A stretch of DNA of 64,000 nt from Chryseobacterium polytrichastri. GTDB lineage: Bacteria > Bacteroidota > Bacteroidia > Flavobacteriales > Weeksellaceae. Made by a program: the position numbers and the translations under genes. Location: NCBI RefSeq assembly GCF_900142445.1, contig NZ_FRAV01000005.1, positions 62,001 to 126,000 of the forward strand, in the 5' to 3' direction. The stretch's first letter is position 1, and every line of letters starts with the position of its first letter. Below, piece after piece: positions 7,663 through 19,806 of the stretch. Below the pieces are notes generated by a model, which was not told the origin of the DNA, did not search any database, and saw nothing but the letters and a program-made list of their open reading frames with translations.

Positions 7663-8117
7663 ATCAAATTATTTTTGTACCCTACAAATTTGTAAAACTT
7701 TATTAAGAACACAAAGAAAAATGTTAATAAATTATAAACTATTCAAATATTACCAATAAAAACACAATTAAAAATATTAAATAATGTTAAAAAATAAAAT
7801 ATTAACAAAAATACAGCATTTAAATATCACTTTTATTTGAAATATGGCAACAATAATTATTATAGGTTTTATCTATATAAACACAATGAAAAAACACAAT
7901 TTATAACTGGCTAACAACATGTTATGAATTAAATATAAAATTTAAAATATATTTAATTAAAATTATCAATGCGATGCATATAATTTTTTTTTCTAAAAAA
8001 ACACTTAAACCTTACTAGCTTACTACATAAAAAATATAACTCGCGGTAATAATATAGATCTCATAAAGCTTATTTTTTTAATTTTACATCTTAAATTTTT
8101 ACAAAGAAATTATTTTC
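7663..8117. other. AT-rich divergent intergenic region susC / rnhB
   Basis: 455 bases without a coding frame, extremely AT-rich, with poly-A/T tracts. On the minus strand CAAATTTG preceded at 19 bases by TTTG (about 7688-7720) is a weak promoter candidate for susC. Nothing else recognisable. Confidence 0.5.
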
Positions 8118-8702
8118 ATGGATTTAATAAAAAGCTGGTCAAACTCTTATATCGAAGCAGGATGTGATGAAGTAGGAAGAGGGTGTTTATGTGGGCCGGT
8201 AGTAGCAGCCGCTGTCATTTTAGATGATAATTTTAAGCAAAATTTAGTTAATGATTCTAAAAAGTTAAATTTCAAAACTAGGATGGAGCTTGACAGCTAT
8301 ATTAAAGACAATGTTAAAAATTATGCTATTGCAGAATTATCACCAGAATTTATAGATCAACACAATATACTGAATGCAAGCATTCACGCAATGCACAGAG
8401 CATTAGACCAGTTAACAATAAGACCAGAGCTTATTTTGGTAGACGGAAACAAGTTTCATCCCTACAATTACATTCCTCATCAATGTATTATAAAAGGAGA
8501 TTCAAAAGTGTTATCCATTGCGGCGGCATCTATTTTAGCAAAAAATTATAGAGACAGATTGATGATTGAGCTGCATGAAGAATACCCTGAATATGGATGG
8601 AATACCAACTTTGGATACGCTACTAAGAAACATCAGGAAGCCCTCATAAAGCATGGTCCCACAAAGCACCATAGACAATCTTTCAGACTTAAGTACGATT
8701 AA
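8118..8702 (+). CDS. rnhB: ribonuclease HII
   Basis: 194 residues, near the family length. RNase HII cuts RNA in RNA-DNA hybrids and starts ribonucleotide excision repair. The active site is visible: Asp17-Glu18 in CDEVGRG, and Asp109 in LILVDGNKF, with the conserved SKKL (about 46-49) and AAASILAKNYRD (about 134-145) blocks. The C-terminal passage YGWNTNFGYATKKHQEAL is also typical. It is a single plus-strand gene, divergent from susC. No oddities. Confidence 0.96.
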   Translation: MDLIKSWSNSYIEAGCDEVGRGCLCGPVVAAAVILDDNFKQNLVNDSKKLNFKTRMELDSYIKDNVKNYAIAELSPEFIDQHNILNASIHAMHRALDQLTIRPELILVDGNKFHPYNYIPHQCIIKGDSKVLSIAAASILAKNYRDRLMIELHEEYPEYGWNTNFGYATKKHQEALIKHGPTKHHRQSFRLKYD

Positions 8703-8848
8703 AGGGTTATTGCATAAGAGACGGAAAGATTCAAGTTAGCCCTTGGTTTTAAATTTGTCTATCCTACAAAACCCCATCATTAATCTATTAAAAACACAGT
8801 ATTATATTACAAATTTTAAATATTTTTCAATAAATCAAAACAAAACAT

Positions 8849-8876
8849 TTGAAATAGATATTTTTATTTATATTTG
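8849..8876 (+). promoter_or_regulatory. consensus flavobacterial promoter for the double-glycine peptide gene
   Basis: TTG at 8849-8851, a 17-base spacer, then TATATTTG at 8869-8876. This is the full TTG-N17-TAnnTTTG pattern. Predicted start of transcription is near 8882, giving a leader of about 70 bases before the ATG at 8953. Confidence 0.8.
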
Positions 8877-8952
8877 AATCATAAAGATTCTATAGTTTTT
8901 CTGAATTTTCAAGAAATCTAAAGAATAATCTTAACCACCAAAAAATAAAAAT

Positions 8953-9090
8953 ATGAAAAACATTGCAAAATTTACAAATGTTAAGTTAATTAACAGAAAT
9001 CAGTTAAAGCAAATTATGGGTGGGCGAATCTGTGCTTGTGGCACACCTTGTCCAGACATGAATCAACCACCTCCAAAACCTTGTAATTAA
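8953..9090 (+). CDS. double-glycine leader peptide (bacteriocin-like / modified-peptide precursor)
   Basis: A 45-codon gene. The first 24 residues, MKNIAKFTNVKLINRNQLKQ followed by IMGG, look like a double-glycine export leader (the LxxIxGG pattern of bacteriocin and Bacteroidota natural-product precursors). The predicted mature peptide starts RICACGTPCPDM and ends NQPPPKPCN: 21 residues with four cysteines and a proline run. A consensus promoter lies upstream and a strong hairpin terminator downstream, so it is a free-standing transcription unit. No peptidase-containing ABC transporter, radical SAM enzyme or immunity gene is nearby, so processing would rely on genes elsewhere. The gene call is solid; whether the product is a bacteriocin, a signal or a modified peptide is open. 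Confidence 0.78.
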   Translation: MKNIAKFTNVKLINRNQLKQIMGGRICACGTPCPDMNQPPPKPCN

Positions 9091-9108
9091 AAATATTTTA
9101 ATTACAAG

Positions 9109-9141
9109 AAAAAAGAGAAGCAATAATTGCTTCTCTTTTTG
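9109..9141. terminator. bidirectional terminator between leader-peptide gene and yidC
   Basis: Stem GAGAAGCAA (9115-9123) and TTGCTTCTC (9127-9135) with a three-base loop, A-run on the left and T-run on the right. Serves both converging genes. Confidence 0.9.
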
Positions 9142-9160
9142 TTATAATAAATTGTTGTTA

Positions 9161-10960
9161 TTATTTCTTTTTATTTTTCTGTTGCTCTACTGCGCTTTGT
9201 TGTTGCTGAGCTTTATCCATCATTTCTCGCATTTTCTTTTGGAACTTACCTTCTGTTTTTGGTTTTTCCTTATTAGCCTGAATCTGTGCATGAATTTTCT
9301 TTTCATCCAAGATTACATATTTAATGACTAAAATAATTAAGATGTTAATCGCATTCGAAATAAAATAATACCAAGAAAGACCAGACGCCGAAGTATTCAA
9401 GAAGAATAAAAATGTAACAGGGAAAATATACATTAACACTTTCATGTTAGGCATACCTTCTTGTTGTGGCTGTTGCATATTTCCTGAAGTCATTACGGTA
9501 TAAATTAAAATTACAACCGTACACGCTAAAGCAAATACACTTAAATGATCTCCTAAGAAAGGAATTTTAAATGGCAATTTAATTAAATCATCATAAGCCG
9601 TTAAATCTTTTGCAAACCAGAATCCTTGTCCTCTTAAATCAATAAAGTTCGGGAAGAAACGGAATAGGGCATAGAAAATCGGAATCTGTACCAATGCCGG
9701 TAAACATCCCGCCATCTGATTCACTCCAGCTTTTCGATAAATTTCCATCGTAGCCTGCTGCTTTTTCATAGGATCTGCATCCTTGAACTTCGCATTTGCT
9801 TCATCAATCTCAGGACGAATCACTTTCATCATCGCACTCAGCTTATGCTGCTTATACATGATTGGTGATAGAATTAACTTCACAATGATTGTCAATATAA
9901 AAATTACCCAACCAGATGCAATTCCCCAAGATGCAATCAAGTTATACATTGGCATAAAGAATCCACGATTCATCCAACCTATAAACGACCATCCTAATGG
10001 TAAAATCTCGTCAAAGTTTTTATCATATGATTTTAACAACGGTAAATCTAAAGGCAAGAAGTACCACGTAAAGTCTTGGTTCAATTCACTTCCAGTCATT
10101 TGAACAAAACCTTCATAGTTTAGTTTCTTCAAATACTCTCCTTCTTCAATTGATTCCTGATTTCCTTTACTGTGTGTAAATCCGTTTTTAGCTTCAATTA
10201 CTGAAGAGAAGAACTGTTGTTTTACACCAATCCAGTTAAGGGTTTCTTTTTCTTCCTCCATCGTCGTTCTTCCGTCATAATCATAGTCTTTATAATTATT
10301 GAACGCATAAGAAAATTCTGAGTGAGACTGTTCCTGAGCTCTACCTTTTTCTAAGTTTCTTACACTGTAATCCCAGATAAAATCTGCTTTAGTATCAGAA
10401 GTAACCTTAGCAAGACCTTGAGATCTTACTTTGAAGTCTACCGTGTATTTATCTAATAAGGTATAAATGAACTGGATAACAGCTCCGTTATAGTTAGCCG
10501 TCAACGTAACAGCATTCCCATTAACTGTTGGAGAGAAAACTAAATCTTTAGTATTGATTACCTTACCTGTTTTATCTTTAAACTGGAAACCGTAGTTTGA
10601 GTTGTTTTTAGTAATCAGATAAAGAGGAAGATCAGCTCTGTCACTTTTGCGATCGTAAGCTTTGTATTTTAAAAGTTCTACTTTAGAAACTTGCCCTCCT
10701 AAACTTGAAAATTCCAATTTCAATTCATTGTTTGCCAAATTTGCAGTCTGAATTGCATTAGGAGTTACATTTGGATTGATATTGCTTGCCTGAGTTTGTT
10801 TTACAGCATTTTTAACTTGTTCAGTTTTTTGTTGCTGAGCCTTTACCTCTTCCTCTTTCGATTGTTTGTTTTGGAAATAAAACATAAAACCGAAGAGTAC
10901 CAAACATAAAACCGCAAAACTAATCATTTGACTTTTATCGAGTCCGTTGTTCTGTTGCAT
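9161..10960 (-). CDS. yidC: membrane protein insertase YidC
   Basis: 599 residues. One N-terminal membrane helix (about 12-30), a large periplasmic beta domain (about 60-330), then the conserved insertase core of five helices (about 355-560) containing GWSFIGWMNRGFFMP, SPIMYKQHKLSAMMKVIRPE and QMAGCLPALVQIPIFYALFRFFP, and a basic, Gln/Lys-rich tail. YidC inserts and folds inner-membrane proteins, alone or with SecYEG. It lies downstream of pyrG on the same strand, but a 411-base gap with a repeat element separates them, so a separate promoter is likely. No anomalies. Confidence 0.97.
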   Translation of the reverse strand: MQQNNGLDKSQMISFAVLCLVLFGFMFYFQNKQSKEEEVKAQQQKTEQVKNAVKQTQASNINPNVTPNAIQTANLANNELKLEFSSLGGQVSKVELLKYKAYDRKSDRADLPLYLITKNNSNYGFQFKDKTGKVINTKDLVFSPTVNGNAVTLTANYNGAVIQFIYTLLDKYTVDFKVRSQGLAKVTSDTKADFIWDYSVRNLEKGRAQEQSHSEFSYAFNNYKDYDYDGRTTMEEEKETLNWIGVKQQFFSSVIEAKNGFTHSKGNQESIEEGEYLKKLNYEGFVQMTGSELNQDFTWYFLPLDLPLLKSYDKNFDEILPLGWSFIGWMNRGFFMPMYNLIASWGIASGWVIFILTIIVKLILSPIMYKQHKLSAMMKVIRPEIDEANAKFKDADPMKKQQATMEIYRKAGVNQMAGCLPALVQIPIFYALFRFFPNFIDLRGQGFWFAKDLTAYDDLIKLPFKIPFLGDHLSVFALACTVVILIYTVMTSGNMQQPQQEGMPNMKVLMYIFPVTFLFFLNTSASGLSWYYFISNAINILIILVIKYVILDEKKIHAQIQANKEKPKTEGKFQKKMREMMDKAQQQQSAVEQQKNKKK

Positions 10961-11008
10961 TCTATTTTAATTAAATTTTTTACCTATTTAAACTTTTCAT
11001 AAAATCTT

Positions 11009-11200
11009 AACCACAAAAGGCACAAAAGTTTCGCTTAACACTTAAGTTAGTTTAAAGATCACGTTAATCCTTATTAAAAGAAAACTTAAGTTTTTTGAAA
11101 ATCTTTGATTTTCCTCTTATGTGAACTTTTTATTTTCAAAACATTAAACTTAAAATACTTATGTATTTCTTAGCTCAACGCTTTTGTTTCTTTTGTGGTT
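11009..11200. repeat. dispersed intergenic repeat, copy A (MITE-like, terminal inverted repeats)
   Basis: 192 bp, non-coding. The left end (11009-11028) starts AACCACAAAAG and contains a second CAAAAG; the right end (11181-11200) is the inverse, CTTTTGTTTCTTTTGTGGTT. A central hairpin GAAAATC-TTT-GATTTTC lies at 11097-11113. Similar elements lie at 15813-15984 and 41807-41986, plus a solo right end at 15641-15681. No transposase is encoded, so it would have to be moved in trans. Confidence 0.7.
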
Positions 11201-11304
11201 ATAAATTTTAAACCCATACGTAAAGTGTATATACACTATACATAATTCGAGTCGACAAAAATACTGTTTTTTTATCAAAACTCTATCTTTTACTCTGTTA
11301 CTAT

Positions 11305-11346
11305 ATAATAAACTCAAGCTGATAATAATCAACCTGAGTTTATATA
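11305..11346. terminator. weak hairpin downstream of pyrG
   Basis: Stem TAAACTCA (11309-11316) and TGAGTTTA (11335-11342) with an inner TGAT/ATCA pair. It lies 30 bases past the pyrG stop. The T-run on the minus strand is interrupted, so termination is likely but not certain. Confidence 0.5.
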
Positions 11347-11371
11347 TGACGTTTGTAATTAAACAATTACC

Positions 11372-12979
11372 TTATTTCTGTTCGCAAGCCTTAATAAAAG
11401 CTTTGAATAAAGGATGCGGTGTTGTAACCGTACTCTTGTATTCCGGGTGATACTGTACCCCAACATAGAACGGGTGATCTGGCATCTCAAGAGCTTCAAC
11501 CAATCCTGTTTCTGGGTTTGTACCTGTGGCTAAGAAACCATTCTTTTCGAATTCCTGAAGATAATCACTGTTGAATTCATAACGGTGACGGTGTCTTTCA
11601 GAAATATTTTTAGCTCCGTAAATATCATATAACTTAGAAGCATTTTTCAATGAACATTTCCAAGCTCCAAGACGCATTGTTCCTCCTTTATCTACTACAT
11701 TTTTCTGCTCTTCCATGATTGAAATTACAGGATCAGGTGTAGAAGTATCAAATTCCATTGAGTTCGCTTTTGAATGTCCAAGAACGTTTCTCGCAAATTC
11801 AATCGTCATGATCTGCATTCCCAAACAAATTCCCAACATCGGAACTTTATTTTCTCTTGCATATTGAGCTGTAAGAACTTTACCTTCAATTCCTCTGTCA
11901 CCAAAACCTGGGGCAACAAGAATTCCATCAACACCATTTAAAGTTTCTTTAATATTTTCAGCTGTAATATCTCCACTGTATACCCATCTCACTTTCACTT
12001 CAGTTTCAAGACTTGCTCCTGCATGTTTGAAAGCTTCTGCAATAGAAATATAAGAATCCTGCAGAGAAATATATTTTCCTACTAAAGCAATTTCTACCGT
12101 TCTTTTAGGATTTTTGAATTTCTTCAGGAAAGTTTTCCAGTCTTTAAGATCAGCTTCTTTATCATTTTTAAGATCTAATTCTTTTAAAACGACATCATCA
12201 AAATTTTGTTTTTGAAGGTACATTGGAACTTCATAGATCGTTTCCAAATCTTTACATTCAATCACATTATCTAAAGAAACATTACAGAATTGAGCCAACT
12301 TCGCTCTCTGATCTTTTGGAATATTGTGTTCTGTTCTACACACTAAAACATCCGCCATAATTCCACTTTCCATTAATTGACGAACAGAATGCTGAGATGG
12401 CTTAGTTTTTAATTCTCCACTTGAAGCCAAATAAGGCAATAAAGTTAAGTGAATCACCATAGAGTTTTTCTCTCCCAACTCCCACTTCAACTGACGAACA
12501 GTTTCAATGTATGGTAAAGATTCAATATCTCCCACAGTTCCACCGATCTCCGTAATAATGATATCGTAGTTCTGCTTAGATAAAATTTTAATTCTACGCT
12601 TAATTTCGTTTGTGATATGAGGAATTACCTGCACTGTTTTTCCAAGGAAATCTCCTTTTCTTTCTTTATCAATTACAGTTTGGTAAATTTTTCCTGTCGT
12701 AACGTTGTTATTTTGAGAAGTTGGAGCGTCCAAATAACGCTCATAGTGACCTAAATCCAGATCCGTCTCCGCACCATCTTCGGTTACATAGCATTCTCCA
12801 TGCTCATAAGGATTCAGTGTTCCTGGGTCGATGTTGATATAAGGATCTAGTTTTTGGATCGTTACATTAAAGCCGCGTGATTTTAGTAGAAGTCCCAGAG
12901 AAGCAGAAACGATTCCCTTTCCCAAAGATGAAGTTACACCTCCTGTCACAAAGATGTACTTTGTATTCTTTTTACTCAT
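11372..12979 (-). CDS. pyrG: CTP synthase
   Basis: About 535 residues from the ATG at 12979. It makes CTP from UTP, ATP and glutamine. The N-terminal amidoligase domain starts KYIFVTGGVTSSLGKGI and includes DPYINIDPGTLNPYEHGE and ITEIGGTVGDIES; the C-terminal glutaminase carries the catalytic Cys in LGICLGMQ and the His-Glu pair in YHPEYKS. An in-frame TTG at 12997 would add six residues, but it lies inside the -7 promoter box TAACTTTG (12995-13002), so the ATG at 12979 (MSKKNTK) is the better start. The gene is divergent from the ynb-like cluster. Confidence 0.96.
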   Translation of the reverse strand: MSKKNTKYIFVTGGVTSSLGKGIVSASLGLLLKSRGFNVTIQKLDPYINIDPGTLNPYEHGECYVTEDGAETDLDLGHYERYLDAPTSQNNNVTTGKIYQTVIDKERKGDFLGKTVQVIPHITNEIKRRIKILSKQNYDIIITEIGGTVGDIESLPYIETVRQLKWELGEKNSMVIHLTLLPYLASSGELKTKPSQHSVRQLMESGIMADVLVCRTEHNIPKDQRAKLAQFCNVSLDNVIECKDLETIYEVPMYLQKQNFDDVVLKELDLKNDKEADLKDWKTFLKKFKNPKRTVEIALVGKYISLQDSYISIAEAFKHAGASLETEVKVRWVYSGDITAENIKETLNGVDGILVAPGFGDRGIEGKVLTAQYARENKVPMLGICLGMQIMTIEFARNVLGHSKANSMEFDTSTPDPVISIMEEQKNVVDKGGTMRLGAWKCSLKNASKLYDIYGAKNISERHRHRYEFNSDYLQEFEKNGFLATGTNPETGLVEALEMPDHPFYVGVQYHPEYKSTVTTPHPLFKAFIKACEQK

Positions 12980-13090: not shown

Positions 13091-13098
13091 CTATATTT
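13091..13098 (+). promoter_or_regulatory. -7 box of the ynb-like cluster promoter
   Basis: TATATTTG, a full match to TAnnTTTG, 33 bases before the ATG at 13131. No TTG at the usual spacing. It would drive at least the first three genes of the cluster. Confidence 0.6.
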
Positions 13099-13130
13099 GA
13101 TCTCACCAAACACAAAAAGCCATAACCATA

Positions 13131-13733
13131 ATGATTTCGGTATATAAATTAAAACCAAAATTCCAGCAGCTGCTCACTCCTATTCTATTATTCTTACATA
13201 AAAAGAAAATTACAGCCAATCAAATTACGATCAGTTCCATTTTATTATCTGTGATTATTGGAATCTTATTTTGGAATGCCGATGTTTCCAAATGGTTTTT
13301 CCTGAGCTTACCCATCGGATTATTGATAAGAATGGCATTGAATGCGCTGGACGGAATGATGGCAAGAAAATTTAATCAAACGAGTAAGTTAGGCGAAGTC
13401 TTAAATGAAGTCGGCGATATTGTTTCAGATGTGATTATTTTTTTTCCGTTATTAAAATTTCAGCCGGAGAGTTTATATTTAATTATCATCTTCATTATTT
13501 TAAGCATCATTAATGAGTTTGCAGGATTAATTGGGAAAGCAATAGGAAAAGAACGCCGCTACGATGGACCCATGGGGAAAAGTGACCGTGCTTTGATCTT
13601 GGGACTGTATGGATTGATCATAATTTTTGGAGTTAATATTTCAAATTATTCTCAATATATATTTGGACTCATTATTTTATTACTTTTGATCAGTACGTAT
13701 ACCCGACTTAAAAAATCCCTCCATGAAGCCTGA
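13131..13733 (+). CDS. CDP-alcohol phosphatidyltransferase family protein, YnbA-like
   Basis: 200 residues with about five or six membrane helices. The family transfers a phosphatidyl group from CDP-diacylglycerol to an alcohol. The signature runs N71-x2-D74-G75-x2-A78-R79-x8-G88-x3-N92-x3-D96: the first and third aspartates of the canonical D-x2-DG-x2-AR-x8-G-x3-D-x3-D motif are asparagine, with an extra Asp at 100. Gene order (this, a CdsA-like gene, then PAP2-phosphatase and hydrolase-methyltransferase genes) resembles E. coli ynbABCD, where YnbA is about the same size. It overlaps the next gene by 11 bases. The alcohol acceptor is unknown. Confidence 0.85.
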   Translation: MISVYKLKPKFQQLLTPILLFLHKKKITANQITISSILLSVIIGILFWNADVSKWFFLSLPIGLLIRMALNALDGMMARKFNQTSKLGEVLNEVGDIVSDVIIFFPLLKFQPESLYLIIIFIILSIINEFAGLIGKAIGKERRYDGPMGKSDRALILGLYGLIIIFGVNISNYSQYIFGLIILLLLISTYTRLKKSLHEA

Positions 13734-14526
13734 AGAAAATAAATTTGCAGATGTTCCTTTACGCGTAAAAACATGGATTTACATTATCTTAGTTTTTGCT
13801 ATCGGAATTTCACATCCTTTGGCGATGAAGGTCTTTATTTCATGGATCAGTTTTCAATGCTTTTTTGAATTTTTGAGAATGTTCAACGTGAATACAAACA
13901 AAATTATTCTTTCAATTTTTATTGGAATTTCACAATTCTTTTTATTGTATTTTTTGAATATTGAGAATTATTTTCTTTATAGTTTAGGCGTATCAATTAT
14001 TGTATTATTATATTTTTCAATCTTAAAATCATCCCGAAAGCAGGTATTGGAAATCCTAACAGCTTTACTAATTTGCCTTTTTGCTTTTCCCCATTTAGTT
14101 TTTATCAGAGAAAATACTTCAGGAATATATGCTATTATTTTTGTTGTCGTTGTGACAGAACTCAATGATGTTTTTCAATATCTAATGGGTAAATTTTTCG
14201 GAAAACATAAAATAGTTCCGAAGATCAGTCCTAATAAAACCTTGGAAGGCTTTCTAGGAGGTGTATTTTTGACGATTATATTAAGTAATATTTTAGGTTT
14301 CTTTTTATTGAATTCTAATATTCTCACCAATACAATTTTAGGTTTCATATTGGGAATTTCAGGATTCTTTGGAGATGTTTTTATGTCTTATTTAAAAAGA
14401 AAAAATGATATAAAAGACACCGGCAATCTACTTCCCGGACATGGCGGTTTATTAGACCGAATGGACAGTTTAATTTTCAATGCCCCAATTTTTTTCTGGA
14501 TGCTTTCGTTTCTTTTAAATCTATAA
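13723..14526 (+). CDS. phosphatidate cytidylyltransferase-like protein (CdsA family, YnbB-like)
   Basis: 267 residues, about seven or eight membrane helices. The C-terminal CDS signature is intact: SYLKRKNDIKDTGNLLPGHG followed by GLLDRMDS (about 225-252), with the earlier KISPNKTLEGFLGG block. The family makes CDP-diacylglycerol from phosphatidate and CTP, the donor for the preceding gene's product. The window does not show whether the genome's housekeeping CdsA lies elsewhere; the ynb-like setting suggests this is a dedicated second copy. Translational coupling with the upstream gene is likely from the 11-base overlap. The next start is 3 bases after its stop. Confidence 0.88.
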   Translation: MKPEENKFADVPLRVKTWIYIILVFAIGISHPLAMKVFISWISFQCFFEFLRMFNVNTNKIILSIFIGISQFFLLYFLNIENYFLYSLGVSIIVLLYFSILKSSRKQVLEILTALLICLFAFPHLVFIRENTSGIYAIIFVVVVTELNDVFQYLMGKFFGKHKIVPKISPNKTLEGFLGGVFLTIILSNILGFFLLNSNILTNTILGFILGISGFFGDVFMSYLKRKNDIKDTGNLLPGHGGLLDRMDSLIFNAPIFFWMLSFLLNL

Positions 14527-14529
14527 AAA

Positions 14530-15567
14530 ATGAGCGAAAAATTTAAAAGAGCATTATTATTTTCAGGAGGCGGAACACGATTAATGATTTACCTCGGGAT
14601 GTTTGCGGCATTGGAAGAATCAGGTATGAAGCCCGACGTTCTTATCGCTTCATGTGGCGGTGCTTTTGCAGCAACCGTCATCAATGCTTTTCCTGATAAT
14701 CTTTCCCGAAAGAAATATTTACAATCAGAAGAATATTTTCAGTTTGTATCTCAAACAGCATTAACAAAACATAAAAAACTCTCTGAAATTGGACTTTTCT
14801 CTTTAAAAAAACTATTTAATAAAAGGAACGCACCTTATATTGAAGATGTCTTTAATCGATACTTGGTTGAAATGAATCAGGATTTATCAGAAGACTTCCC
14901 CTCGTTGAAAAATGCTTCTTTTTCTCAGGAAATTCCGACTTTAATTATTGGTTCAGAGCTCAATTTTAATCCAACAGAAATTGGACAAAAACGAATTCAT
15001 CGAAAATTATATCAAAAAACAATTTTTACAGATCCTGAAACAGCGAAGAAAATAATTCCGCAGCACATCATCATTACTTCTGAAAATTTAAAACAGAGTG
15101 CCGTTGAAGAAATCCCCAACATAAGAACAGATGTTTCTTTATTAACAAGCACTAGAATTTCTGTTTCCGATATGTTCTATGTTGCTCCCGCTTCATTTCA
15201 GGGGAAATATTTTGCAGGGGGTGCTATTGATCTCATTCCAATTGAATTGGCAAAGCATCTTGCAGAAGAAGTTATTATTGAAAAAAAACAATCTTATACT
15301 CCCGTTGAAGAAGCTTTTGTTCGCGCCGTTTTAGGATACAGCGGAAATAAAAGGCTGGAAGAAATTGGAAATCAGTCACCCGATTTTCAAATTGACACAA
15401 ATAATATTAAGCAAAAACTGGAAGGACATTATATCAAAAAAAGTATCAATTGGAGAAAAGTTGAGATTACACTTTCTTTGCCTACAAGTCATCAACAGTT
15501 TGTAAAAGATATGGAAATGCAGTGGCAATATGGCTTTGATCAGACGATGAAAAGTATAAAAATATAA
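14530..15567 (+). CDS. patatin-like phospholipase
   Basis: 345 residues. The N-terminus RALLFSGGGTRLMIYLGMFA carries the glycine-rich oxyanion loop (GGGTR), and the nucleophile motif is reduced to ASCGG with Ser41, lacking the first Gly of GxSxG. The aspartate region reads FAGGAIDLIP rather than the usual DGG, so the Ser-Asp dyad is present at best in altered form. Patatins are serine acyl hydrolases of membrane lipids. It follows the CdsA-like gene by 3 bases and so belongs to the same transcription unit, suggesting lipid remodelling. The canonical E. coli ynb operon lacks a patatin, so this is an addition. Activity is uncertain because of the altered motifs. Confidence 0.8.
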   Translation: MSEKFKRALLFSGGGTRLMIYLGMFAALEESGMKPDVLIASCGGAFAATVINAFPDNLSRKKYLQSEEYFQFVSQTALTKHKKLSEIGLFSLKKLFNKRNAPYIEDVFNRYLVEMNQDLSEDFPSLKNASFSQEIPTLIIGSELNFNPTEIGQKRIHRKLYQKTIFTDPETAKKIIPQHIIITSENLKQSAVEEIPNIRTDVSLLTSTRISVSDMFYVAPASFQGKYFAGGAIDLIPIELAKHLAEEVIIEKKQSYTPVEEAFVRAVLGYSGNKRLEEIGNQSPDFQIDTNNIKQKLEGHYIKKSINWRKVEITLSLPTSHQQFVKDMEMQWQYGFDQTMKSIKI

Positions 15568-15607
15568 TTTCAAAACAGATAAGTTTTGGATAAATCCTGC
15601 ATTCAAC

Positions 15608-15640
15608 AACCATGTCAAGGTTTTGAACCTTGACATGGTT
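15608..15640. repeat. 13-bp perfect hairpin, palindromic repeat or terminator
   Basis: AACCATGTCAAGG (15608-15620) pairs with CCTTGACATGGTT (15628-15640) around a seven-base loop. No T-run follows, so it is not a classic terminator. It abuts a solo end of the dispersed repeat, which suggests a REP-like element. Confidence 0.6.
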
Positions 15641-15681
15641 CTAAAATACTAATATGTTAATCTTTTGCCTCTTTTGTGGTT
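15641..15681. repeat. solo right end of the dispersed repeat
   Basis: These 41 bases match the right end of copy B (15944-15984) at 37 positions, ending in CTTTTGCCTCTTTTGTGGTT. The rest of the element is absent. Confidence 0.65.
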
Positions 15682-15722
15682 GAAATAAGAATTTAATAAA
15701 ATTATTAATTATTTTAAGTTTT

Positions 15723-15776
15723 GGCTAAAGCCTATTCTTTTTCTTTTTTTTTTATTTGAACGGGTTAAAACCCGTT
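15723..15776. repeat. two short palindromes (REP-like)
   Basis: GGCTAAAGCC at 15723-15732 and AACGGGTT-AA-AACCCGTT at 15759-15776, separated by a T-rich stretch. Non-coding. Probably part of a second short intergenic repeat family. Confidence 0.45.
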
Positions 15777-15812
15777 TCTATTGATAAGGACTCTATACTT
15801 ATTTGAAAATTT

Positions 15813-15984
15813 ACTGCAAAAGCAACAAAAGCTATTTGGATAACTAATCATTATTTAATTTTAGAAAACAAAAGTTCTTGAAAGATTAAAAATCAAAGAT
15901 TTTTCAAAACTTATGTGCTCTTATTTACACTTTAATGATAAACTTAAAATACTAATGTGCTAATCTTTTGCCTCTTTTGCGGTT
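15813..15984. repeat. dispersed intergenic repeat, copy B
   Basis: 172 bp with ends ACTGCAAAAGCAACAAAAG (left) and CTTTTGCCTCTTTTGCGGTT (right), inverse of each other. It has an inner hairpin AAAAATC-AAA-GATTTTT and shares AAACTTAAAATACT with copy A near the right end. It splits the ynb-like cluster between the patatin and SDR genes. Confidence 0.68.
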
Positions 15985-16073
15985 AAAATAAAAAAGGTAT
16001 AAAAGGAATTTCACCCTTTTCATTATTAAATAAAAATCTATTTTTACCTAAAATTGAAAATCACAACACGCTT

Positions 16074-16826
16074 ATGAATGTTTTTATTGCAGGCGGGACT
16101 TCAGGAATAGGCTATTCGTTGGCTCAGCATTATCTTTCAAAAGGATATTGCGTGGGGATTTGCGGAAGAGATCTGACTAAAATACCAGAAAACAGTTCAG
16201 GCAATTTAAAAGTATTTCAAGCGGATGTTTGTGATATGAATTCAATTTTTTCGGCCGTAAATAATTTTTCACAAAATGGGAATCTTGATATTTTCATCAA
16301 TTGTGCCGGAAGTTACGCAGAAGATGTTGCCGGAAATATTTCTTATGAAGAAGCCGAAGAAATGTTACAAACCAATATTTTAGGAACTGTGAATGGTTTT
16401 GAAGTTGCCCGAAAAATAATGAAAGGTCAAGACAAAGGAAGCATTGCTGTTATTGCTTCAGTTTCCGGAATTATGGACTATGAAAATTCGAGTTTGTATA
16501 CCAAAACTAAACGTTCTGTGATTCAGATTGCGGATGCTTATCGCCGAGCTTTGAAACCGTTTGGAATTTCTGTAACGACAATCGCTCCGGGATACGTGGA
16601 TACATTGAAATTGAGACAGCTTAATGCTAATGATTTAAGCAAGAAACCATTTCTTACTGATCTTGAAAAGGCAACAGCTACCATTTCAGATGCCATTGAA
16701 ATGCAAAAGAAAATAATTATTTTTCCTGTAAAAATGAAATGGATGATGAAATCTTTATCCCTTCTCCCCTCTTCATTATTAAATATCATCATGTTTAAAA
16801 AAGCAAAATGGATGAAAAACGATTAG
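16074..16826 (+). CDS. short-chain dehydrogenase/reductase
   Basis: 250 residues. The Rossmann start MNVFIAGGTSGIG gives the TGxxxGIG-type cofactor motif (GGTSGIG, 7-13), the NAG motif appears as CAGSY, and the active-site YTKTK provides the Tyr-x3-Lys pair after a conserved SVSG serine. The C-terminal third has a hydrophobic stretch (SLLPSSLLNIIMF), suggesting membrane association. It overlaps the following PAP2-phosphatase gene by 19 bases, so the two are coupled. In this cluster it may oxidise or reduce a lipid head group or acyl product; the substrate is not readable. Confidence 0.85.
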   Translation: MNVFIAGGTSGIGYSLAQHYLSKGYCVGICGRDLTKIPENSSGNLKVFQADVCDMNSIFSAVNNFSQNGNLDIFINCAGSYAEDVAGNISYEEAEEMLQTNILGTVNGFEVARKIMKGQDKGSIAVIASVSGIMDYENSSLYTKTKRSVIQIADAYRRALKPFGISVTTIAPGYVDTLKLRQLNANDLSKKPFLTDLEKATATISDAIEMQKKIIIFPVKMKWMMKSLSLLPSSLLNIIMFKKAKWMKND

Positions 16827-18115
16827 ATGTAAAGCAGAAAATCTATGCAATGCTATTGTGTTCTGTTGTATTCATAATCGTTTACAATTATTCGGCGTGG
16901 CATGCTTCAACGCTGGAAAAAGTTTCTTCTTTTGTTTTTGATTTTGAAAAATACATCCCGTTTCTTCCTTGGACTATTATTCCTTACATGACCAGCGGAT
17001 TATTTTTCTGTTCAGTTTTTTTCTATTGTAACACAAAAGAGCAACTCAAGGTTCTGACTCGAAGAATTCTGTTAGTAACTCTTATTGCAGGAATTTGTTT
17101 TTTATTATTTCCCTTGAAATTTTCTTTACAAAGACCTGAAATTACCCATTCTGTTTTTGGATATTCTTTTCAGTTTTTATCAACATTTGATTCTCCTTTC
17201 AACCAAGCGCCTTCCCTACATATTGCATATGCTTTTATTTTCTGGACTGTTTTTAAAGATTTAAAAAAATGGAGAATGTTTTTGCTATTTTGGTTAATCG
17301 CTTTGGGAATTTCCACCTTAACAACTTATCAACATCATTTCATTGATATTATCACAGGAACCATTCTGGCTCATATTAGTTTCCTTATCTTTCCTTATCA
17401 AAAGAATAACTTTTTATATAGGAATTTTCAAGTGGCTAATTCTTACTTCTTGATAGGATGGATTTTCGTTTTAGTCTCTTTATTATTGTATAAATTTTCA
17501 CATACATATTGGTTGCTTTTGTTGTGGGTGGCTCTCATTATGATCATAATTTGCTATCATTACCAGAAAAATAATATTCACTTTTTAAAAGATAACAACG
17601 GAAATATTCCTTTTTATAAAAAGCTGTTTTACTTTCCTTATACGTTCATCTATTGGATATTCTGGAAGTTTTTAAGAAAGAATAAAAGACCATTAGAGAT
17701 TGTACCTAGTCTTTATATTTCGTCAAGGCTCAATAAAGAAGATCTAATATATTTTGAAATTAATAAAAATACTTTCGTTTACGATTTGGCAGCAGAAATG
17801 GAAGAAAATGAGATGATAAAAGAAAAAGCAACATACTTTTCCGTTCCTTTTTTAGACATTGGAACCTTAGATATTCATCAAACGAAAAAACTCGTTACAG
17901 AAATCGTAAAGAATTATCATCAGTTACCGAAAGACGGGAAAATATTGATTCATTGCACGATGGGTTATACCAGAAGTTCTGTCATCGGAATTTTAGTAAT
18001 GAAAAATATTCTATCTTTACCTCTAAACCAAGCCATAACCAATATGAAAATCCTGAATAAGAACGCAGTCATTCATTCTTATCTCTTCGATTTTCTGAAA
18101 AAAATTAATATATGA
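16808..18115 (+). CDS. PAP2-dual-specificity phosphatase fusion, YnbD-like inner-membrane protein
   Basis: 435 residues. An N-terminal membrane half (about 10-260) carries PAP2 motifs: PSLH at about 136-139 and the later QHHFID, giving the His-x3-Asp pair. The C-terminal cytosolic half (about 290-435) is a dual-specificity phosphatase with the signature HCTMGYTRSS, that is Cys-x5-Arg. Both domains remove phosphates from lipids or phosphoproteins. Length and layout fit E. coli YnbD (about 430 residues). A lipid phosphate product of the YnbA/YnbB-like enzymes is the obvious substrate (inference). It overlaps both neighbours (19 and 4 bases). Confidence 0.87.
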   Translation: MDEKRLDVKQKIYAMLLCSVVFIIVYNYSAWHASTLEKVSSFVFDFEKYIPFLPWTIIPYMTSGLFFCSVFFYCNTKEQLKVLTRRILLVTLIAGICFLLFPLKFSLQRPEITHSVFGYSFQFLSTFDSPFNQAPSLHIAYAFIFWTVFKDLKKWRMFLLFWLIALGISTLTTYQHHFIDIITGTILAHISFLIFPYQKNNFLYRNFQVANSYFLIGWIFVLVSLLLYKFSHTYWLLLLWVALIMIIICYHYQKNNIHFLKDNNGNIPFYKKLFYFPYTFIYWIFWKFLRKNKRPLEIVPSLYISSRLNKEDLIYFEINKNTFVYDLAAEMEENEMIKEKATYFSVPFLDIGTLDIHQTKKLVTEIVKNYHQLPKDGKILIHCTMGYTRSSVIGILVMKNILSLPLNQAITNMKILNKNAVIHSYLFDFLKKINI

Positions 18116-19806
18116 ATAGCGGAAATTTTAAAAGTTTTGATGAAAGCGAGATCTTTTATCGTGAATGGAATTATCAACCTCAACAAAAGAGTATCATCAT
18201 CATTCATCGTGGTCATGAACACTCCGAAAGACTGAACGATATCGCACAATCGCAACAATTCTCAAACTACAATATTTTTGCATTCGACCTTCGCGGACAT
18301 GGGCATACGAAGACCCCAACTTCTTCTATTTTTATGGACTATGTACGTGATTTGGATTCTTTTTCAAAATTCATACAATCAAAGTATACTATAAAAATTC
18401 AGGATACATTTGTACTTGCCAACAGTATTGGAGGCGTAGTTGCCTCTGCCTGGGCACATGATTTCGCTCCTAACATTGCAGGAATGGCTCTTTTAGCGCC
18501 TGCTTTTAGAATTAATCTTATCGTTCCTTTGGCGAATGAAATGATCACTTTGGGGACTAAACTAAAGAAAGGATTGATCATTAAAAGTTATGTGAAATCA
18601 ACCATGTTGACGCATGATCCTGAACAACAAAAAGCTTACGATACAGATCCTTTGATCACACGATCTATTGATGCAGAATTACTCATCGATCTGGCTAAAG
18701 CAGGAAAACGTTTGGTAGAAGATGCAGCCGCAATTGATACACCGACTCTTATTTTATCGGCCGAAAAAGATCATGTTGTTTTCAATAAAGATCAGAAAAT
18801 TTTTCATGACCAATTAGATACAGATCTAAAACACTACGAAGTCCTTCCTAACTTTTTTCACGGAATTTTATTTGATACCGGAAAAGAATTGGTCTATGAT
18901 AAAATTAAAGATTTCGCTGAAAAATGTTTTAGTCAAACTCAGAAAAAAGCATCCCTTTCACCCGATAAATTTTCTGTAAAAGAATATCAGGATCTTCAAA
19001 ATAATGTAGGCAATAATCTCAACTTTAAATTTCAAAAATGGTCTTTGAATACCATCGGAAAGATCAGTAAAGGAATGGAGATCGGATTGAAACATGGCTT
19101 TGATTCTGGCGCTTCTTTAGATTATGTGTATCACAATCAGCCTCAAGGGAAATTAGGTTTTGGAAAAATGATGGATAAAAATTATCTCGAGGCTATTGGC
19201 TGGACAGGAATTCGAATCAGAAAGCAACATTTAATTAAACTTTTAGAACAAAAAATTAAAAGCCTTCAGCAGGAAGGAAGAAAAGTAAAAATTCTTGATA
19301 TTGCTGGCGGAACAGGAAATTATCTATTCGATATTAAAGAAAAATATCCTGAAGTTGAAATTGTGGTTAATGAATTTGTAAAGGCTAATATTGAGATCGG
19401 AGAAAAAGTAATTCAGGAAAAGAAATATCAAAATATCAGATTTACTAACTTTGATTGTTTTGATCCTGAAACCTATAAGAAATTAAATTTCGAACCTAAT
19501 ATTACCATCGTTTCGGGAATTCTGGAACTTTTTGGAGATAATGAAATGGCAAGTAAAGCCATTCAGGGAGTCAATTCTATTTCAGAAAAAAATTCATTCA
19601 TTGTATATACTGGACAACCTTGGCATCCGCAATTGAAAATGATTGCTTATGTATTGAACAATCATCAAAATAAAGACTGGATTATGAGGAGGCGTTCTCA
19701 AAAAGAATTGGATAGAATGATGACTTTCAACAATATTCAGAAAGAAAATATGTTGATTGATGATTTTGGAATTTTTACGGTGTCTTCCGGAAAGGTTAAT
19801 TTTTAA
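18112..19806 (+). CDS. alpha/beta hydrolase-methyltransferase fusion, YnbC-like
   Basis: 564 residues, start overlapping the previous stop (ATGA). The N-terminal half (about 1-280) is a serine hydrolase of the monoacylglycerol-lipase type: HRGHEHSERL, a nucleophile elbow ANSIGG, the acid in AEKDHVV and the His in NFFHGILFD. The C-terminal half (about 300-564) is a class I SAM methyltransferase with motif I ILDIAGGTGNY. The two-domain layout and length match E. coli YnbC (about 585). The enzyme could deacylate and methylate a lipid made by the cluster (inference). It is the last gene of the run and ends before a terminator shared with yceI. Confidence 0.87.
   Translation: MNSGNFKSFDESEIFYREWNYQPQQKSIIIIHRGHEHSERLNDIAQSQQFSNYNIFAFDLRGHGHTKTPTSSIFMDYVRDLDSFSKFIQSKYTIKIQDTFVLANSIGGVVASAWAHDFAPNIAGMALLAPAFRINLIVPLANEMITLGTKLKKGLIIKSYVKSTMLTHDPEQQKAYDTDPLITRSIDAELLIDLAKAGKRLVEDAAAIDTPTLILSAEKDHVVFNKDQKIFHDQLDTDLKHYEVLPNFFHGILFDTGKELVYDKIKDFAEKCFSQTQKKASLSPDKFSVKEYQDLQNNVGNNLNFKFQKWSLNTIGKISKGMEIGLKHGFDSGASLDYVYHNQPQGKLGFGKMMDKNYLEAIGWTGIRIRKQHLIKLLEQKIKSLQQEGRKVKILDIAGGTGNYLFDIKEKYPEVEIVVNEFVKANIEIGEKVIQEKKYQNIRFTNFDCFDPETYKKLNFEPNITIVSGILELFGDNEMASKAIQGVNSISEKNSFIVYTGQPWHPQLKMIAYVLNNHQNKDWIMRRRSQKELDRMMTFNNIQKENMLIDDFGIFTVSSGKVNF

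What the first reader, a model, noticed from the sequence alone, without database searches (positions are those of the whole stretch)
13131..19806. ynbABCD-like lipid cluster with added patatin and SDR enzymes
Seen: a CDP-alcohol phosphatidyltransferase and a CdsA-like cytidylyltransferase overlap, then come a patatin, an SDR, a PAP2-phosphatase fusion and a hydrolase-methyltransferase fusion, with most junctions overlapping. Known: E. coli ynbA-ynbD encode the same four core types at similar sizes, function unsettled. Inferred: CTP plus phosphatidate gives CDP-DAG, an unknown alcohol phosphate is attached, the phosphatase removes a phosphate (as in the PGP-to-PG step), and the head group is then methylated or oxidised, so a dedicated unusual phospholipid would result.
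Basis: partly seen in the sequence, partly recalled or inferred. Interest (0 to 1): 0.75.

Follow-up and report, generated by a model that had tools for sequence, protein, structure and literature searches.

The report
Membrane-defence lipid cluster, patatin variant
These six neighbouring genes are the Bacteroidota version of a lipid-making gene set whose likely Pseudomonas relative helps cells survive membrane-cutting toxins from rival bacteria; this version swaps one enzyme for two others and carries enzymes with unusual active sites.

Summary
The six genes are real and intact. A, B, C and D are relatives of E. coli YnbA-D. Among 87 loci holding the YnbC fusion, 40 carry patatin plus SDR and 33 carry a PlsC-like acyltransferase; none carries both. 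So the "added" pair looks like a replacement for an acyltransferase, not head-group tailoring. (1) The YnbA family has rebuilt the CDP-alcohol phosphotransferase active site: the first and third metal-binding Asp are each Asn in 80 of 81 rows, with a new invariant Arg; 30 of 30 control enzymes are canonical. (2) The patatin has Cys in place of the Ser nucleophile (40 of 40) and has lost the catalytic Asp. The acyltransferase-bearing form in Pseudomonas fits the published description of arc1 (PA2541-PA2536), a locus needed to survive T6SS attack, in one study against lipase effectors; PAO1 itself was not compared. Best explanation: a specialised parallel route from lysophosphatidate to a PG-like, tailored phospholipid that helps membranes survive phospholipase attack. 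Product and each reaction are inferred. New variant of a known kind.

The parts
13131..13733 (+). A: YnbA-type CDP-alcohol phosphotransferase with remodelled motif R67xxxN71xxD74GxxA..G88xxxN92ExxD96xxxD100
   Evidence: Pfam PF01066 42 bits; 42% identical to E. coli YnbA; motif counts in 81 rows
13723..14526 (+). B: YnbB-type phosphatidate cytidylyltransferase (CdsA-like)
   Evidence: Pfam PF01148 202.7 bits; 36% identical to E. coli YnbB; D245 and D248 each in 74 of 75 rows with a letter
14530..15567 (+). P: patatin-fold protein with Cys42 in the nucleophile elbow and no catalytic Asp
   Evidence: Pfam PF01734 40 bits; Cys 40 of 40 rows with a letter; AF2 pLDDT 92.9; PlpD Z 19.5, rmsd 3.5, 231 aligned
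15568..16073 (.). 506-bp non-coding spacer with a palindrome (15610-15638) and a 60-nt direct repeat; no plausible gene
   Evidence: by longest ORFs the spacer is 26 to 513 bp in nine related Chryseobacterium loci
16074..16826 (+). S: classical short-chain dehydrogenase/reductase with S129, Y142, K146
   Evidence: PF00106 116 bits; 42 of 42 rows for each residue; present in 40 of 40 loci with P
16808..18115 (+). D: YnbD-type PAP2 (PAP2_3) plus dual-specificity phosphatase fusion
   Evidence: H138, H176, D180 70 of 70, C383 68 of 69, R389 68 of 68 rows with a letter; 31% identical to E. coli YnbD
18112..19806 (+). C: YnbC-type monoacylglycerol-lipase-like hydrolase plus Methyltransf_20 fusion
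   Evidence: PF12146 179 bits and PF12147 309.5 bits; S105 86 of 86, D220 and H250 87 of 87; human MGL Z 33.8, rmsd 2.3, 269 aligned
13092..13099 (+). TAnnTTTG box upstream of A, like the Bacteroidota -7 promoter consensus (consensus recalled)
   Evidence: two such boxes in the 186 bases scanned there, not tested against chance or for function

Best explanation
The cluster is the Bacteroidota form of the YnbABCD/Arc1 lipid module. Proposed working: P with S, or a PlsC-like protein L in other lineages, supplies or re-acylates a glycerophosphate backbone (inferred from P/L exchange). B turns phosphatidate into CDP-diacylglycerol (a review reports this in vitro for E. coli YnbB; inferred here). 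A transfers the phosphatidyl group to an alcohol phosphate with a remodelled active site (family and phosphate-binding Arg tested; chemistry inferred; glycerol phosphate is my guess for the acceptor). D removes the phosphate (inferred). C trims an acyl chain or clears lyso- or monoacyl-lipid and methylates the product (inferred). The lipid, or the repair flux itself, helps the membrane withstand phospholipase toxins delivered by rivals, as published for P. aeruginosa arc1.
For: Kinship of A-D to E. coli ynbA-D. Conserved neighbourhood: of 72 loci with at least 6 kb on both sides of C, A is near in 70, B in 63, D in 61, P in 37, L in 24, P and L together in 0. P+S and L alternate with at least three changes on the YnbC tree when rows with neither are left uncounted; no shuffle of 500 was as low for either label. 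Pseudomonas loci L077, L082 and L089 carry A, C, D, a 147-163-aa hydrophobic protein, L and B. That fits arc1A-F = PA2541-PA2536: six genes, five lipid-related, four like PG-synthesis enzymes (PMC8926400, passages). An arc1 deletion mutant has reduced fitness against B. thailandensis with a working T6SS only, and arc1A mutants are more sensitive to A. baylyi carrying only the lipase Tle1 and to V. cholerae, less so without active TseL (PMC12663445, passages). The own genome also has an Arc3A-family protein and a TssC. Low dN/dS argues against decay: A 0.04-0.06 in four Chryseobacterium pairs, P 0.06-0.11 in seven.
Against: No phenotype or lipid product was found for any Bacteroidota copy or for ynbABCD in E. 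coli. PAO1 was not compared directly: 0 of 298 genomes held the PA2536 start string; that string fits a B start only loosely in L077 (15 of 20 bases) and at none of five other loci scanned, the end string fits no B end, and 17-of-20 matches turn up elsewhere in two of three Pseudomonas genomes. In PMC8926400 no single-toxin inactivation, lipases Tle1 and Tle3 included, relieved the arc1 defect, and arc1 loss also modestly raised B. thailandensis survival. arc1A is auxiliary beside arc3A against V. cholerae. The review says E. coli YnbB supports MPIase but not phospholipid synthesis. B is missing near C in 9 and D in 11 of 72 loci. Only 45 of 173 same-genus genomes and 1 of 296 phylum genomes, the own one, carry Methyltransf_20. 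The cluster genes other than C, and A less so, are less constrained than pyrG and radA (dN/dS 0.01-0.05), and most dS values are saturated.
Confidence: 0.55

Rival explanations
1. A dedicated unusual phospholipid for general membrane physiology: the head group is attached by A, dephosphorylated by D, then methylated by C and oxidised by S, with no special link to toxin defence.
For: Domain set; a phosphate-binding Arg pair in A; presence in 4568 of 5426 E. coli genomes, 4239 over at least 80% of the query. In PMC8926400 the arc1 defect was not tied to a lipase toxin.
Against: P is always with S and both alternate with L, which points to the acyl side. Published arc1 mutants tolerated heat, H2O2, salt and detergent like wild type but were defective under antagonism (PMC8926400).
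Confidence: 0.25
2. A metabolic back-up for the glycolipid MPIase: B makes CDP-diacylglycerol for GlcNAc-PP-diacylglycerol, as proposed for E. coli YnbB.
For: Review account of Sato 2019 (PMC7018664 passages).
Against: It explains only B; B is missing near C in 9 of 72 loci.
Confidence: 0.07
3. Inositol-lipid synthesis like Bacteroidota BT1523 or mycobacterial PgsA1.
For: The best NCBIfam scores of A are archaetidylinositol-phosphate synthase (75.9 bits) and PIP synthase (43 bits), both far under their cut-offs of 180 and 170.
Against: The Arg after the fourth Asp that PMC6506517 links to inositol phosphate (MtPgsA1 R94) is Arg in only 6 of 81; BT1523 model 27.1 bits against a cut-off of 350.
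Confidence: 0.05
4. A and P are pseudoenzymes: scaffold or lipid-sensing proteins whose catalytic residues are lost, with C, D and S doing the chemistry.
For: Two of four metal-site Asp are Asn in A; the Ser-Asp dyad is absent in P.
Against: Replacement letters are uniform rather than scattered (Asn 80 of 81 at both sites, Cys 40 of 40), other pocket residues are invariant (R67, R153, R192), and dN/dS is low. A is near C in 70 of 72 loci.
Confidence: 0.15

Closest known systems
E. coli ynbABCD
   Same: Four related proteins, including both unusual fusions and the Asn/Asn motif of YnbA
   Different: No patatin, SDR or acyltransferase found in the cluster (L009); gene order A-B-C-D there, A-B-P-S-D-C here
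P. aeruginosa arc1A-F (PA2541-PA2536), antagonism resistance cluster 1
   Same: Six-gene lipid cluster with PG-synthesis-like enzymes (PMC8926400); other Pseudomonas read here have A, C, D, small protein, L, B
   Different: PlsC-like L in place of patatin plus SDR; Gac/Rsm control is not expected in Bacteroidota; PAO1 itself not compared
Canonical PgsA/PIPS CDP-alcohol phosphotransferases (MtPgsA1, AF2299)
   Same: Family profile, second and fourth Asp, acceptor-phosphate Arg pair
   Different: First and third Asp replaced by Asn; extra Arg one helix turn before the first; Arg at the R94 place in only 6 of 81
Patatin-like phospholipases (PlpD, CapV, CapE)
   Same: Fold and GGGxR oxyanion loop
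   Different: Cys for the nucleophile Ser, catalytic Asp of DGG missing
Monoacylglycerol lipases
   Same: N-terminal domain of C, intact triad
   Different: Fused to a Methyltransf_20 domain

Membership tests
YnbABCD cluster family | Relatives of YnbA, YnbB, YnbC and YnbD together | tested here: met
YnbABCD cluster family | Asn-Asn variant motif of YnbA | tested here: met
   N71 and N92 in the window; 80 of 81 each in the family
Arc1 (P. aeruginosa PA2541-PA2536) | Same six gene families | tested here: inconclusive
   A, B, C, D shared with Pseudomonas loci L077, L082, L089; L and the small protein are not in the window cluster, P and S are. PAO1 not held; identification rests on the paper's description; the primer-string test was weak
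Arc1 (P. aeruginosa PA2541-PA2536) | Protects against T6SS lipase effectors | not testable with these tools
   Published for P. aeruginosa only (PMC12663445 passages); not seen for single toxins in PMC8926400
Arc1 (P. aeruginosa PA2541-PA2536) | Gac/Rsm regulation | not tested
   Reported for P. aeruginosa; the paper says Gac/Rsm is confined to gammaproteobacteria
Canonical CDP-alcohol phosphotransferase | DxxDGxxAR..GxxxDxxxD metal motif | tested here: not met
   D1 and D3 are Asn; 30 of 30 control loci match the canonical pattern, and two further own-genome enzymes keep Asp, read by eye
Canonical CDP-alcohol phosphotransferase | Pfam CDP-OH_P_transf domain above cut-off | tested here: met
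   42 bits, cut-off 22
Patatin phospholipase | GxSxG nucleophile and DG[GA] Asp | tested here: not met
   Cys 40 of 40; no Asp among the letters listed
Patatin phospholipase | Patatin fold | tested here: met
   PlpD Z 19.5, rmsd 3.5, 231 aligned
Inositol-phosphate synthase group | Arg after the fourth Asp (MtPgsA1 R94) | tested here: not met
   Ile in the window; Arg in 6 of 81
PADLOC anti-phage systems | Match to a PADLOC model | tested here: not met
   0 families for all six proteins at E 0.001

The most novel reading that the evidence does not exclude
The YnbA family is a distinct class of CDP-alcohol phosphotransferase whose two-metal aspartate site has been rebuilt with two Asn and an Arg (one-metal or metal-independent chemistry, or a new donor or acceptor). 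It makes an undescribed phospholipid that hardens or repairs membranes against phospholipase toxins across many phyla. In the Bacteroidota-type cluster a Cys-nucleophile patatin works as an acyltransferase that, with the SDR, stands in for a PlsC-type enzyme.
Probability: 0.35. Interest if true: 0.82.

Novelty: new variant of a known kind. Interest (0 to 1): 0.62.

Why it matters
ynbABCD is in 4568 of 5426 complete E. coli genomes and arc1 is a published defence locus, yet I found no product named for either in the passages read. Joining the two, showing that the acyltransferase slot is filled by either PlsC or Cys-patatin plus SDR, and pointing to exact residues (N71, N92, R67 of A; C42 of P) makes the question testable: what lipid does it make, and does it blunt phospholipase toxins? 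A CDP-alcohol phosphotransferase working without two of its four metal-site aspartates would also change the textbook motif.

Tried and rejected
Hidden gene in the 506-bp gap: only short frames, apart from the upstream extension of the SDR frame itself; rejected. Mobile island inserted as a unit: in Chryseobacterium the flanking genes recur (10 and 11 loci counting the window; I read them as CTP synthase and RadA by eye), so it sits at one place in those, while flanks differ elsewhere. Anti-phage system: no PADLOC match and no match in phage records for one Pseudomonas YnbA query. Inositol lipid: rejected (see rivals). Further conserved partner gene: the families recurring in 3 or more loci within 8 kb were mostly genus-specific flanks; one exception is told under noticed. 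The small protein of the Pseudomonas type has no Pfam match and could not be generalised (one hit, itself, with the Shinella protein as query). Fold of the methyltransferase domain: Foldseek and VIA lists were filled by the hydrolase domain, so nothing can be said. Literature, listings only: full-text searches for ynbA-D, YnbB with CdsA, PA2536-41, patatin with catalytic cysteine, YnbA with phosphatidyltransferase, and Arc1 with Arc3 (also 11 and 27) listed no title or abstract start about the Asn motif, the Cys-patatin or the patatin/SDR variant; most listed papers were not opened, and preprints and most subscription papers are not held. The first patatin control scripts were flawed (loose pattern, wrong-strand assumption) and were replaced: 26 of 35 loci show GxSxG (two of these, L155 and L161, look like chance matches), 21 of the 26 with DG[GA] downstream; two more read CCSAG with Ser kept; seven could not be read; none read with Cys at that place.

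Presence means a profile score of 100 bits or more (200 for S) within 8 kb of C; a gene elsewhere in the genome would be missed. Residue counts use rows above the bit limits. The 30 control loci are the best-scoring hits, largely one per genome, of 61 genomes that hold more hits. L006 was left out of the tree because its C gene is in two pieces; C rows longer than 640 aa were cut to their last 620 residues there. L016 is cut by the contig end, so P cannot be seen there. The PS label counted against all other rows, those with neither included, needs six changes instead of three. The dN/dS method returned no dS for several pairs. The list for patatin position 229 shows 40 of 41 rows. On re-checking I lowered the main confidence from 0.60 to 0.55, because the PA2536 string test is weaker than I first wrote.
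Full report
What is there. The window lies in a 5.14-Mb genome whose nearest relatives at this locus are Chryseobacterium. Six plus-strand genes stand at the stated coordinates with the stated domains. I call them A (CDP-alcohol phosphotransferase), B (CdsA-like), P (patatin), S (SDR), D (PAP2 plus dual-specificity phosphatase) and C (monoacylglycerol-lipase-like hydrolase plus Methyltransf_20). Junctions: A/B overlap 11 nt, B/P 3-nt gap, P/S 506-bp gap, S/D overlap 19 nt, D/C overlap 4 nt. The gap holds no plausible gene; it contains a palindrome found at three places in this genome and a 60-nt direct repeat. By longest ORFs it measures 26 to 513 bp in nine Chryseobacterium relatives. A TAnnTTTG box, like the Bacteroidota promoter (consensus recalled), starts 39 nt before A.

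Kinship. A, B and D are 42, 36 and 31% identical to E. coli YnbA, YnbB and YnbD. C is 37% identical to E. coli YnbC, 36-38% to the four proteobacterial rows and 57% to the Fusobacterium row of the alignment. In E. coli complete genomes, 4568 of 5426 match a 3,980-base stretch from ynbA into ynbD, 4239 of them over at least 80% of it. In Bacteroidota the Methyltransf_20 marker of C is patchy: 1 of 296 genomes sampled across the phylum, that one being the own genome, but 45 of 173 in the genus, the own one included. It occurs once in the own genome.

Neighbourhoods. A scan with a YnbC alignment found 572 relatives; the best 80 were kept. With six loci from plasmid records and the window this gives 87 loci, annotated with profiles built here. 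P is in 40 of 87, always with S; S without P is in two more, L016 (contig end) and L052 (5 kb away). A PlsC-like acyltransferase (L) is in 33 of 87. None has both P and L; 14 have neither. Among the 72 loci with at least 6 kb on each side of C, A is near in 70, B in 63, D in 61, P in 37, L in 24, both 0, neither 11. On a tree of 86 YnbC rows the P and L states need at least three changes when rows with neither are not counted (six for the P label against all others); no shuffle of 500 was as low for either label. The P/S type is found in Bacteroidota, a Fusobacterium MAG, a Desulfobacterales MAG, Oxalobacteraceae, a Rhodoferax and on a Moraxella plasmid. I infer that P plus S fills the slot of L. 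L keeps a normal HX4D and FPEG[TS]R motif in 32 of 32 rows. S is therefore more likely to work on the acyl or backbone side than on the head group.

The active site of A. The canonical motif is D1xxD2GxxAR...GxxxD3xxxD4, with Mg-1 held by D1, D2 and D3 in M. tuberculosis PgsA1 (PMC6506517, passages). In 81 A rows, D1 is Asn in 80 and D3 is Asn in 80, D2 and D4 are Asp in 81, and an Arg one turn before D1 (R67) is present in 81. The two exceptions are L069 (Asp at D1) and a second paralogue in L072 (Ser at D3). In 30 of 30 control loci, the best-scoring CDP-OH_P_transf hits from 61 Bacteroidota genomes, D1 and D3 are Asp, and 0 of 30 have Arg at that place; two other own-genome enzymes, read by eye, also keep Asp. 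These controls are high-scoring and so lean towards canonical enzymes. Solved relatives aligned (cholinephosphotransferase, MtPgsA1, AF2299) also have Asp. R153 and R192 of A (81 of 81) align with MtPgsA1 R155 and R195, proposed to bind the phosphate of the acceptor, so an alcohol phosphate is the likely acceptor. The place of R94, linked to inositol phosphate there, is Arg in only 6 of 81, so inositol phosphate is unlikely. Glycerol phosphate is my guess. dN/dS of A is 0.04-0.06 in the four Chryseobacterium pairs where dS could be computed, against 0.01-0.05 for pyrG and radA, so this is a maintained site and not decay.

The patatin. GGGxR is kept in 39 of 39 rows with a letter, the nucleophile is Cys in 40 of 40, and the DGG Asp is replaced (Ala 26, Met 6, Thr 3, Leu 3, Ile 1 of 41 rows, one gap, one not listed; none of the 23 rows printed has Asp). 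An AlphaFold2 model (mean pLDDT 92.9) puts Cys42 between a strand and a helix, the nucleophile elbow. The nearest solved fold is PlpD (Z 19.5, rmsd 3.5, 231 aligned); FabD-type transacylases follow at Z 6-7.4, too weak to mean much alone. Other Bacteroidota patatins show Ser where readable: GxSxG in 26 of 35 loci, two of them doubtful, plus two with CCSAG; seven unreadable. A Cys nucleophile without the Asp base would favour acyl transfer over hydrolysis; that is inference.

The other proteins. C: the hydrolase triad S105, D220, H250 is invariant, and the domain matches human monoacylglycerol lipase with Z 33.8, rmsd 2.3 over 269 residues; the methyltransferase domain keeps D396 and G400 in 87 of 87, but its fold neighbours could not be read because the hydrolase filled the lists. 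D keeps PAP2 His/Asp residues in 70 of 70 and the phosphatase Cys in 68 of 69, while the first basic position of the PAP2 motif varies (Arg 26, Lys 22, Gln 16 of 71). S keeps Ser-Tyr-Lys in 42 of 42.

Function. PMC8926400 (abstract, section 5 and passages) names arc1A-F, PA2541-PA2536, a Gac/Rsm-controlled six-gene P. aeruginosa cluster in which five genes are lipid-related and four resemble PG-synthesis enzymes. A mutant survives T6SS antagonism poorly but tolerates heat, H2O2, salt and detergent. In that paper no inactivation of a single attacker toxin, the lipases included, relieved the arc1 defect, and the authors call its role broader. PMC12663445 (passages) finds that arc1A mutants are more sensitive to A. 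baylyi carrying only a lipase and to V. cholerae, less so without its active lipase, with an auxiliary role beside arc3A there. The Pseudomonas loci read here (L077, L082, L089) carry A, C, D, a 147-163-aa hydrophobic protein, L and B, matching that description. PAO1 itself could not be compared: 0 of 298 genomes of that genus hold the printed PA2536 start string; it fits the B start of L077 at 15 of 20 bases but not those of five other loci, its end string fits no B end, and better chance matches exist elsewhere in two of three genomes. So the link rests on the paper's description plus gene content. My recollection of the PAO1 annotations agrees and is recall only. The own genome also has an Arc3A-family protein and a TssC. 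Other ynbA mentions seen are single passages in a c-di-GMP screen and a radiation study. A review credits E. coli YnbB with CDP-DAG synthesis in vitro and MPIase support (PMC7018664, passages).

Model. L, or P plus S, provides acylated backbone; B activates it; A adds an alcohol phosphate; D dephosphorylates; C trims and methylates. This is a full parallel route to a PG-like lipid. Shown: gene content, residues, exchange, selection, and (by others) the phenotype of P. aeruginosa arc1. Inferred: the arc1 identity, each reaction, the product and the defence role in Bacteroidota.

Verdict. New variant of a known kind (YnbABCD/Arc1), with two unexpected active sites that deserve biochemistry.

Noticed in passing
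L052, L054, L055, L056, L069, directly downstream of C: Five loci that lack D carry instead a separate O-methyltransferase-like protein (Methyltransf_2, 53 bits for the L054 copy) right behind C. Of the 11 full loci without D these are five; it may be another module swap.
   Followed up: partly
L006 (Moraxella osloensis plasmid pNP7-2), 8281-16224: A plasmid typed mobilizable carries the patatin/SDR type, but C is in two pieces and D is split by a transposase gene.
   Followed up: partly
L010 (E. coli conjugative plasmid), 6808-12000: An acyltransferase-type cluster (A, B, L, C) on an E. coli conjugative plasmid, distinct from chromosomal ynbABCD; only a short D fragment was found, with IS66 genes further downstream.
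   Followed up: partly
window 15568-16073: The patatin-SDR spacer holds a 60-nt direct repeat and a palindrome present at three genome places; spacer length varies from 26 to 513 bp among close relatives, as if small repeats come and go inside the operon.
   Followed up: partly
L167 and L168 (own genome C58 and C40): The genome also encodes an Arc3A-family DUF2339 protein and a T6SS TssC, so attack and defence parts may coexist.
   Followed up: no
G398:C15:194552-195426 (same genus): One same-genus genome has the Methyltransf_20 region split into two frames, a likely decayed copy.
   Followed up: no
L129 and L138: Two other patatins of this genus read CCSAG at the nucleophile elbow: the first Gly is Cys but Ser is kept.
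   Followed up: no
L032, L037, L038, L046, L053, L067, L070, L075, L076: Nine of 72 full loci have no recognised B (CdsA-like) gene near C, presumably relying on the housekeeping enzyme.
   Followed up: no
L059, L065, L068, L071, L081: A divergent YnbA type in Verrucomicrobiota, Planctomycetota, Acidobacteriota and a deltaproteobacterial MAG keeps both Asn but has Arg after the fourth Asp, as inositol-phosphate enzymes do.
   Followed up: no
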